From Burkholderiaceae bacterium (GTDB lineage: Bacteria; Pseudomonadota; Gammaproteobacteria; Burkholderiales; Burkholderiaceae): a stretch of DNA of 7,835 nt. The DNA lies in assembly GCA_023253905.1 (NCBI GenBank), contig JALREG010000150.1, positions 1 through 7,835 of the forward strand. Reading direction: 5' to 3'. Positions 5,478 to 7,835 of the stretch are shown here, piece by piece. A model generated the notes under the pieces. It worked only from the letters and a program-made list of their open reading frames with translations. It did not search any database and was not told the origin of the DNA. The position numbers were made by a program, and so were the translations under genes. Position 1 is the first letter of the stretch; each line of letters begins with the position of its first letter.

Positions 5478-7835
5478 TCAGCCCAGCTTCGCGCGCTGTT
5501 CGTGAAGCCGCGCGAGTGACGCCTCGAATCCGGCCAGACGCTCGCGCTCCTGTGCCACCACATTGGCGGGCGCACGTTCGACGAAACTCGCGTTGCCGAG
5601 CTTGGCGCCGGCGCGCTGCACCTCGCCTGACACGCGGGCGATTTCGCGATCGAGGCGCGCGCGTTCCGCCGCTACATCGATCTCAACACGCAGCATCAGC
5701 CGGACATCGCCCACGATCTGCACTGGCGCGATCGATCCGGCGGGCAGCGCGTCAACGATTTCAACAGCCTCGAGCTTTGCAAGCGCCTTCAGGTAGGGTG
5801 CGAATTCGGCGAGCTGTTTGCGCGAACCCTGTGCGATGAGCGGGAGTTTCTGCGCGGGCGAGACGTTCATTTCACCGCGCAGGGCGCGACACGCATCGAT
5901 CAGCTGCTTGAGCTGACTGACGAACGCTTCGCTCTTTTCGTCGATTTTTCCAGGTTCGCTTTTTGGATAGGGCTGCTGCATGAGCAGATGACGCTGCTCG
6001 GCTACTGCCTGGGCGAGCGCCTCTCCGGAGAGTTTTTGTACGCCGCGCTCGCCGTAGCGCTGGGCAATCGGCGCGACCTTCTGCCACAACTCTTCGGTGA
6101 TGAAAGGGATGATGGGGTGCGCGAGCCGCAGCACCGCCTCGAGCACGCGGAGCAGCGTGCGTCGCGTGGCGCGAACCACCGCCTGATCGTCTGCCTGAAG
6201 ATTGACCTTCGCGAGCTCCAGATACCAGTCGCAGTATTGGTCCCAGACAAACTCGTAGAGCGCGCGCGCGGCGAGATCGAAGCGATAGTCAGACAACGCA
6301 CGCTCGATCTCGGCTTCGGTGCGCTGCAGTGCTGAGACGATCCAGCGGTCAACCGCGTTGAAGTGAAGATAGCCGCCTGGTACGCAGGCACCCGCCTCGT
6401 GGGGCTCGAAACCGCAGTCACGCCCTTCGGTTTGCATCAGCACGAAACGCGAGGCATTCCAGAGCTTGTTACAGAAGTTGCGATAGCCCTCGCAGCGGCT
6501 GAGGTCAAAGTTGAGCGTGCGGGCGAAGGTGGCAAGCGAGGCGAAGGTAAAGCGCACCGCGTCGGACCCGAATGCCGGAATGCCCTGCGGGAAGTTGCTG
6601 CGGATGTAGCGGTCGATGCGCTGCTTGTGGTCGGCTCGAAGGAGGCCAACCGTTGACTTCTCGAGGAGCGCCTCGAGCGTAATGCCGTCCACCAGATCGA
6701 TTGGGTCGATGGTGTTGCCCTTCGACTTCGACATCTTCTGGCCTTCGGAATCACGCACGATCGCATTGATGTAAACGTGATGAAACGGCACCTTGCCCGT
6801 GAAAAAAGTGGTCATCATCACCATCCGGGCCACCCAGAAGAAGATGATGTCAAAGCCCGTCACCAGTACGTTTGAGGGCAGATAGCGATCCAGGTCAGCG
6901 GTCTGTTTGGGCCAGCCGAGCGAGGTGAAGGGCACCAGGGCCGACGAGAACCAGGTATCGAGCACGTCATCGTCACGCACCAATGCGCCCTGGTAGCCCG
7001 CAGCGCGGGCCCGCGCCTGGGCATCCGCTTCATTACGCGCGACAAACACCGTGCCGTCGTGAATCGGCTGGCCTTGAGCGTCGGCCTTGTACCAGGCAGG
7101 GATGCGATGGCCCCACCAGAGTTGCCGGGAAATGCACCAATCTTGAATGTTTTCGAGCCAGTGGTTGTAGGTGCTGGTCCAGTGGTCGGGGAAGAAGCGA
7201 ATCTGCCCGTCACGGACCACCTGCAGGCAGACATCTGCGATCGACTGGCCGGGGAAGAACGCATTGCCGTGATCACGGCGGCTCATCGCGACAAACCACT
7301 GGTCGGTGAGCATGGGTTCAACCACCACCTGAGTGCGCGCCGAACGCGGCACCATCAGCGTGTGCGGCTTCTCCGATACGAGGCAATCCGCAGCGCGCAG
7401 GTCTTCCAACACCTTTTTTCGCGCGTCATAGCGGTCGAGGCCGCGATAGGCCACGGGCGCCTGATCATTGATGCGGGCATCGAGGGTGAGCACGCTGATC
7501 GCTGCAAGCCCGTGGCGCTCGCCCATCTTCCAGTCATTGAAATCATGAGCTGGCGTGATCTTGACGCAGCCCGTGCCGAAGGCGGGGTCGACATAGTCGT
7601 CGGCGATGATCGGAATGTCACGATCGCAAAGCGGAAGTCTGACCCACTTTCCGATCAGGGCGCGATAGCGTTCATCATCCGGATGCACGGCCACCGCCGT
7701 GTCGCCCAGCATGGTGCCGTCGCCACCCAGCACCACCGCCACATCGCAGTGTTGACCGAGCTCGGCGGCGGGGGCGCTGCCGAACACCGTCAGGCCGGTG
7801 TTGAGGGCCGTGTTCTGCTCCAAGAGCACTTCCAC
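5478..7835 (-). CDS. valS: Valyl-tRNA synthetase, C-terminal part, fused at its 5' end to a NadK-like fragment
   Basis: This class Ia synthetase charges tRNA-Val and edits Thr-tRNA-Val. The frame is open to the right edge (785 residues seen). From residue 41 on it is ValRS: editing-domain TMLGDTAVAV (41-50) and GTGCVKITPAHDFND (87-101), the IQDWCISRQLWWGHRIPAWY block, DVLDTWFSSAL, and KMSKS (367-371). The anticodon-binding region follows, with NKLWN (about 456-460), and the C-terminal tRNA-binding coiled-coil arm (about 720-785) contains SFVERAPANVV. From residue 41 to the stop the protein looks intact. Residues 1-40 do not resemble ValRS. The usual sequence before ETMLG, about 200 residues including the HIGH motif and the TTRPE part of the editing site, is missing and replaced by NAD-kinase-like sequence. 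As it stands the product could not activate valine. The stop lies 49 nt from that of the convergent SDR gene. Confidence 0.93.
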   Translation of the reverse strand: MEVLLEQNTALNTGLTVFGSAPAAELGQHCDVAVVLGGDGTMLGDTAVAVHPDDERYRALIGKWVRLPLCDRDIPIIADDYVDPAFGTGCVKITPAHDFNDWKMGERHGLAAISVLTLDARINDQAPVAYRGLDRYDARKKVLEDLRAADCLVSEKPHTLMVPRSARTQVVVEPMLTDQWFVAMSRRDHGNAFFPGQSIADVCLQVVRDGQIRFFPDHWTSTYNHWLENIQDWCISRQLWWGHRIPAWYKADAQGQPIHDGTVFVARNEADAQARARAAGYQGALVRDDDVLDTWFSSALVPFTSLGWPKQTADLDRYLPSNVLVTGFDIIFFWVARMVMMTTFFTGKVPFHHVYINAIVRDSEGQKMSKSKGNTIDPIDLVDGITLEALLEKSTVGLLRADHKQRIDRYIRSNFPQGIPAFGSDAVRFTFASLATFARTLNFDLSRCEGYRNFCNKLWNASRFVLMQTEGRDCGFEPHEAGACVPGGYLHFNAVDRWIVSALQRTEAEIERALSDYRFDLAARALYEFVWDQYCDWYLELAKVNLQADDQAVVRATRRTLLRVLEAVLRLAHPIIPFITEELWQKVAPIAQRYGERGVQKLSGEALAQAVAEQRHLLMQQPYPKSEPGKIDEKSEAFVSQLKQLIDACRALRGEMNVSPAQKLPLIAQGSRKQLAEFAPYLKALAKLEAVEIVDALPAGSIAPVQIVGDVRLMLRVEIDVAAERARLDREIARVSGEVQRAGAKLGNASFVERAPANVVAQERERLAGFEASLARLHEQRAKLG
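7704..7835 (-). other. NAD kinase (NadK)-like fragment joined in frame to valS
   Basis: Residues 1-44 of the minus-strand frame read as an internal NadK segment: VEVLLEQNTALNTG, then AELGQHCDVAVVLGGDGTMLG. The LGGDGT signature preceded by CDVAVV is the nucleotide-binding motif of bacterial NadK. In that family it is normally followed by further NadK sequence on the pattern of ARQLAP...GINQGRLGF. Here it runs straight into ValRS after the shared TMLG codons (7704-7715). The piece is cut by the window edge on its N-terminal side. Diacylglycerol kinases and phosphofructokinases also carry GGDGT-like motifs, but the flanking residues fit NadK better. It is either a chimeric join or the remnant of a real rearrangement. 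Confidence 0.72.

What the first reader, a model, noticed from the sequence alone, without database searches (positions are those of the whole stretch)
7704..7835. NadK-ValRS chimeric reading frame joined at a TMLG microhomology
The minus-strand frame changes identity abruptly. Residues 1-40 match the NAD kinase pattern ending in LGGDG; residues 45 on are the ValRS editing domain (DTAVAVHPDDERY). The 12 bases between them (7704-7715, encoding TMLG) fit both families, since NadK can read GGDGTMLG and ValRS reads RPETMLGDTA. This is what a template switch or short-homology recombination leaves. The frame is kept, so gene callers see one plausible long protein. About 200 ValRS residues with the HIGH motif and the TTRPE editing peptide are lost, which should be lethal if this were the only valS. 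An amplification or assembly chimera at a contig edge is the likeliest cause. A real deletion joining two genes is the exciting alternative.
Basis: partly seen in the sequence, partly recalled or inferred. Interest (0 to 1): 0.8.

Follow-up and report, generated by a model that had tools for sequence, protein, structure and literature searches.

The report
Chimeric NadK-ValRS join, likely artefact
The last 120 bases of this bacterial DNA fragment come from a different housekeeping gene and are joined, through a 12-base stretch that both genes share, to a truncated valyl-tRNA synthetase gene, most likely in the test tube during sequencing rather than in the living cell.

Summary
On the minus strand, residues 1-44 (7835-7704) are a NAD kinase segment: NF002561 positions 36-79, 45.8 bits; 40 of 44 identical to NadK P0121. 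Residues 41-785 are valyl-tRNA synthetase. The independent intact homologue P0001 (988 aa) differs at 10 of 745 residues from the junction on and matches 1 of 40 before it. The parts share ACCATGCTGGGC (7704-7715, TMLG).

No relative examined has the join. All 80 fetched valS loci carry ValRS N-terminal sequence (partial in 2) and none holds nadK. All 28 NadK hits continue as NadK. None of 26 longer candidates carries the NadK piece. In 24 relatives with both genes, 20 have them on different contigs and 4 on one contig, 56 kb to 1.22 Mb apart.

The foreign tail is 120 bases at a probable contig end, shorter than a typical short read. Best explanation (0.88): a chimeric library or amplification molecule formed by short-homology template switching. 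An assembler overlap of 12 bases is less likely. A real duplication junction is not excluded but unlikely. Reads could not be inspected. Not a real biological feature; low interest.

The parts
7716..7835 (-). NAD kinase fragment (chimera residues 1-40; aligns with residues 35-74 of the 291-aa NadK P0121), ending in LGGDG
   Evidence: NF002561 positions 36-79 over residues 1-44; 40 of 44 identical to P0121 over residues 1-44
7704..7715 (-). 12-base shared word ACCATGCTGGGC (TMLG), junction between the two genes, in the same reading phase in both families
   Evidence: NadK hits read GGDGTMLG-I and ValRS reads RPE-TMLG-D; the same 12-mer in 19 of 72 valS and 4 of 23 nadK loci with the motif, of 80 and 24 scanned
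5478..7703 (-). valS from the editing domain to the C-terminus (chimera residues 45-785 plus stop), KMSKS region kept, N-terminal 243 residues with HMGH absent
   Evidence: NF004349 positions 215-859 over residues 41-780; 10 differences of 745 from P0001 over residues 41-785

Best explanation
An in vitro chimera. During amplification or library preparation, an incomplete strand ending in ACCATGCTGGGC from nadK annealed to the same 12 bases in valS (or the reverse) and was extended, giving one hybrid molecule. A read from it extended the end of a valS contig by 120 bases of nadK. The frame is kept only because both families encode TMLG in the same phase with these bases. Shown: two gene origins, a 12-base shared word at the join, and absence from the relatives examined. 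Inferred: that the join happened in vitro, and that it came through a single or rare read.
For: Two families meet at one point. Near-identical intact ValRS P0001 and P0002 exist on other contigs (99% and 98% over 95% of the query). 80 of 80 valS loci from relatives match the ValRS N-terminal region (partial in 2) and 0 of 80 contain NadK; 24 of 24 nadK loci contain no ValRS N-terminus. None of 26 candidates of 432-1374 aa carries the NadK segment. In the 24 relatives with both genes, nadK and valS are on different contigs in 20 and on one contig in 4, at 56 kb, 409 kb, 514 kb and 1.22 Mb. The longest shared sense-strand word between nadK and valS of one genome is 9-14 bases, median 12, in 24 pairs (antisense 10-16), so a 12-base word is about the best annealing site two such genes offer. 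Each of 25 relatives has one ValRS match over the family cut-off. In vitro chimeras with 2-21 shared bases are documented for multiple displacement amplification (PMC1855051, passages seen). In the same ValRS clade, P0050 is another apparent hybrid and ends in EIGRAHV, which is what a recalled Illumina adapter translates to.
Against: No reads, depth or mate pairs could be examined, and the window's sequencing method is unknown. Real microhomology junctions look the same: all 40 sequenced E. coli lac amplification junctions had microhomology (PMC3161906, passages seen). In multiple displacement amplification 85% of chimeras were inverted and most of those within 10 kb (PMC1855051, passages), so that exact process is not specially favoured. 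Different contigs in draft genomes do not by themselves prove distance.
Confidence: 0.88

Rival explanations
1. A real junction in a subpopulation: a tandem duplication whose ends fall in nadK and valS, joined by a microhomology template switch in the cell. Intact copies of both genes remain on either side, so no essential gene is lost.
For: A 12-base microhomology fits the range of in vivo E. coli junctions (3-30 bp in complex events, PMC3161906 passages). In one relative (G014) the genes lie 56 kb apart on the same strand, and in G021 1.22 Mb apart on the same strand.
Against: The junction was not found in any relative examined. The contig stops 120 bases into the nadK part, although a real duplication would continue through the start of nadK and its neighbours. 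In two of the four relatives with both genes on one contig they lie on opposite strands (G009, G017).
Confidence: 0.05
3. A real deletion or translocation that made a fused NadK-ValRS gene as the only copy.
For: The frame is open across the join.
Against: The product lacks the ValRS HMGH region and most of NadK. The genes are not neighbours in the relatives where this could be measured (4 of 24), and each of 25 relatives has one ValRS match over the cut-off. Both enzymes are generally essential (recalled).
Confidence: 0.01

Closest known systems
In vitro amplification chimeras (multiple displacement amplification, PCR template switching)
   Same: Two separate segments joined at a short shared word, seen in sequence data and not in the relatives examined
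   Different: Multiple displacement amplification chimeras are mostly inverted and nearby (PMC1855051, passages); here the relative orientation in the source genome and the amplification method are unknown
Microhomology-mediated duplication junctions in bacteria (E. coli lac amplification, PMC3161906, passages)
   Same: Microhomology at the joint between two distant segments
   Different: No second copy, raised depth or continuation on the nadK side was seen or could be tested
Bacterial valyl-tRNA synthetase (NF004349, TIGR00422; P0001)
   Same: Residues 41-785 align to P0001 with 10 differences of 745
   Different: The first 243 residues are absent, with 40 NadK residues in their place
Betaproteobacterial NAD kinase (NF002561; P0121)
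   Same: 40 of 44 residues identical to P0121, including GGDG
   Different: Only 44 of 291 residues are present

Membership tests
Short-homology in vitro chimera | Two segments of different genomic origin meet at one point | tested here: met
Short-homology in vitro chimera | A short word shared by both parents sits at the join | tested here: met
   12 bases, judged from relatives of both parents
Short-homology in vitro chimera | Join absent from independent sequences of relatives | tested here: met
   0 of 80 valS loci and 0 of 24 nadK loci; 0 of 28 NadK hits; 0 of 26 longer candidates. One search scored only 8000 candidates and listed 120, so rarer copies could be missed
Short-homology in vitro chimera | Join supported by few reads or molecules only | not testable with these tools
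   no reads and no genome held
Functional valyl-tRNA synthetase | N-terminal catalytic half with HIGH motif | tested here: not met
   residues 1-243 of P0001, with HMGH, absent; 116 of the 120 ValRS hits listed have an HxGH motif in their first 200 residues
Functional valyl-tRNA synthetase | KMSKS, anticodon-binding and C-terminal arm domains | tested here: met
   PF00133 C-terminal part, PF08264, PF10458; GQKMSKSKGN in the translation
Functional NAD kinase | GGDG motif | tested here: met
Functional NAD kinase | C-terminal NAD kinase domain (PF20143) | tested here: not met
   not matched in the chimera, matched in P0121
Conserved NadK-ValRS fusion protein | The same domain order in an independent genome | tested here: not met
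   none found

The most novel reading that the evidence does not exclude
The join is a real microhomology junction of a tandem duplication or amplification carried by part of the population, with intact nadK and valS beside it: a snapshot of structural variation in an uncultured relative of the Burkholderiales.
Probability: 0.06. Interest if true: 0.3.

Novelty: not a real feature. Interest (0 to 1): 0.06.

Why it matters
It matters mainly as a warning: an in-frame chimera at a contig edge reads as one long ValRS and still scores above the valS family cut-offs (832 bits against 704 for NF004349). If the join were real it would be a rare observed rearrangement joint between two housekeeping genes.

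Tried and rejected
A conserved fusion family was rejected: no independent protein or locus examined has it. Residues 1-44 as a divergent ValRS segment was rejected: 1 of 40 residues match P0001 before the junction, and the segment alone hits only NAD kinase families and NAD kinases. Neighbouring genes with a simple deletion was considered: where both lie on one contig (4 of 24 relatives) they are 56 kb to 1.22 Mb apart; in the other 20 they are on different contigs, which does not prove distance. A second nadK tally over 50 further relatives (49 of 50 with a match) was not paired with valS positions, because the matching valS search did not complete and was not repeated. A viral-contig scan with P0001 and one for the junction DNA found nothing, and a plasmid search with the 44-residue piece found nothing at E 1e-5; these collections are not expected to hold chromosomal genes, so this says little. 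Repeats in the window and PDB relatives added nothing to the question. Whether the NadK piece comes from the same organism as the ValRS could not be settled: the best NadK match is 40 of 44, and GC is 0.692 in the 120-base tail against 0.619 in the valS part and 0.644 overall, too short a stretch to decide.

Loci left out of counts: 8 of 80 valS loci and 1 of 24 nadK loci lacked the strict motif. The 8 valS loci have variants such as RPETMLGDA or RPETMLADG. One search found the ValRS N-terminus in 80 of 80, partial in two: L002 (the match begins at base 4 of the locus, at the contig end; another piece lies on a second contig of that genome) and L010 (two frames: model positions 2-52 and 53-859 lie next to each other, so the gene looks frameshifted in that metagenome genome). 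nadK was not found in 2 of 75 relatives searched (G015, G055). 5 of the 80 relatives were not searched for nadK. The motif pattern requires E before TMLG, so its 72 of 72 GAA/GAG is not evidence by itself.

Full report
What the sequence shows. The minus-strand frame 7835-5478 reaches the window edge and encodes 785 residues. Residues 1-44 alone match NAD kinase models only (best NF002561, positions 36-79, 45.8 bits). Residues 41-780 match valS models (NF004349 positions 215-859, 832 bits). Both matches include residues 41-44, TMLG.

Parents. A search of about 5.8 billion proteins with the whole frame (8000 candidates scored, best 120 listed) returned ValRS sequences; the best, P0001 and P0002 (988 aa each), cover 95% of the query at 99% and 98% identity. 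From residue 41 on, P0001 differs at 10 of 745 positions and P0002 at 16; in the 40 residues before the join 1 of 40 match in each. TMLG begins at residue 244 of P0001, so 243 residues are missing. A search with residues 1-44 alone, limited by query length to proteins of 165-525 aa, returned 28 of 80 candidates, all with NAD kinase domains and 290-300 aa long. The best, P0121, is identical at 40 of 44, and 28 of 28 continue after the segment as IAR or MAR. So neither half is a divergent form of the other family.

The join. The residue before TMLG is E in the eight closest ValRS, whereas the window has G, encoded GGC as in 20 of 23 nadK loci with the motif. After TMLG the NadK relatives have I or M, whereas the window has GAC, D, as ValRS. 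The shared word is therefore 12 bases, if the parents follow their relatives. The identical 12-mer is found in 19 of 72 valS and 4 of 23 nadK loci with the motif, of 80 and 24 scanned. The longest exact word shared between nadK and valS of one genome was 9-14 bases on the sense strand (median 12) and 10-16 on the antisense strand in 24 genome pairs; in one pair (L087/L003) the sense word is this very 12-mer. A random blunt join would show 12 shared bases with a probability of roughly one in a million (my estimate, not computed), so the join was probably guided by the short homology. Because TMLG is in phase in both families, the kept frame is a consequence and not separate evidence of function.

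Relatives. In that of 80 alignments begin at residue 41 and 11 at residue 22-31; I read the 11 as chance extensions. A NadK query found nothing in any of the 80 loci, and the ValRS N-terminus was found in 80 of 80, partial in 2. nadK was found in 24 of 25 genomes and 49 of 50 more. In the first 25, each genome has one ValRS match over the family cut-off. Among the 24 with both genes, 20 have them on different contigs; the 4 on one contig lie 56 kb (G014, same strand), 409 kb (G009, opposite), 514 kb (G017, opposite) and 1.22 Mb (G021, same) apart. A search for proteins of 432-1374 aa carrying the NadK piece scored none of 26 candidates at E <= 0.1. Of the 120 ValRS listed, 116 have an HxGH motif in their first 200 residues; the four without it are P0023, P0050, P0087 and P0119.

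Reading. The foreign tail is 120 bases at the edge of the window. No larger genome is held, and the other edge also cuts a gene (alaS), so the window is probably a whole contig (inference). A tail shorter than a typical short read (recalled, 100-150 bases), a short homology at the join, and its absence elsewhere together point to a chimeric amplification or library molecule. Shared stretches of 2-21 bases in over 70% of junctions are described for multiple displacement amplification (PMC1855051, passages). PCR template switching is described as a source of hybrid molecules that stay at low copy number, 8.1e-5 to 2.6e-3 of reads in three data sets (PMC4666380, passages). A pure assembler join over 12 bases is less likely. 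A real tandem duplication joined by microhomology, as in E. coli (PMC3161906, passages), is the only live biological rival. It need not be lethal, but it has no positive support here. The reads decide, and they were not available.

Supporting oddity. P0050, a hit, agrees with P0001 at 39-40 of 40 residues per block in residues 401-680 and 37-39 in 681-800, but at 15-32 of 39-40 in the blocks before residue 400, and ends EIGRAHV, which is the translation of a recalled Illumina adapter. It is thus another hybrid-looking record of the same ValRS clade, with a probable library remnant.

Noticed in passing
P0050 (protein hit): A database ValRS of 813 aa whose second half is nearly identical to P0001 and whose first half is a different ValRS; its last residues EIGRAHV equal a translated Illumina adapter (adapter recalled). 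Probably a chimeric contig with adapter remnant.
   Followed up: partly
P0023 (protein hit): A 750-aa ValRS (76% identical) that starts exactly at the Met of the same TMLG motif; its contig could not be fetched, so a truncated contig, a start-codon choice or another break near this site cannot be told apart.
   Followed up: no
window 7644-7646: Chimera residue 64, in the ValRS part, is Trp (TGG) where all eight closest homologues P0001-P0008 have Arg or His; it lies about 190 bases from the window edge and may be a sequencing error in thinly covered sequence.
   Followed up: partly
window 2123-5428: Between alaS and valS: an MFS transporter, two single-domain chromate transporter genes that overlap at ATGA (3888-3891), a TusA-like gene and a short-chain dehydrogenase. 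The Limnobacter MAG locus L002 keeps SDR, TusA, MFS and alaS in this order with no match to the chromate pair.
   Followed up: partly
G049:C33:3959-4084 (genome of L044): A second, weak NadK N-terminal match (22.9 bits, model positions 7-48) about 1.6 kb from the full nadK of that genome; chance or a partial copy, not examined.
   Followed up: no
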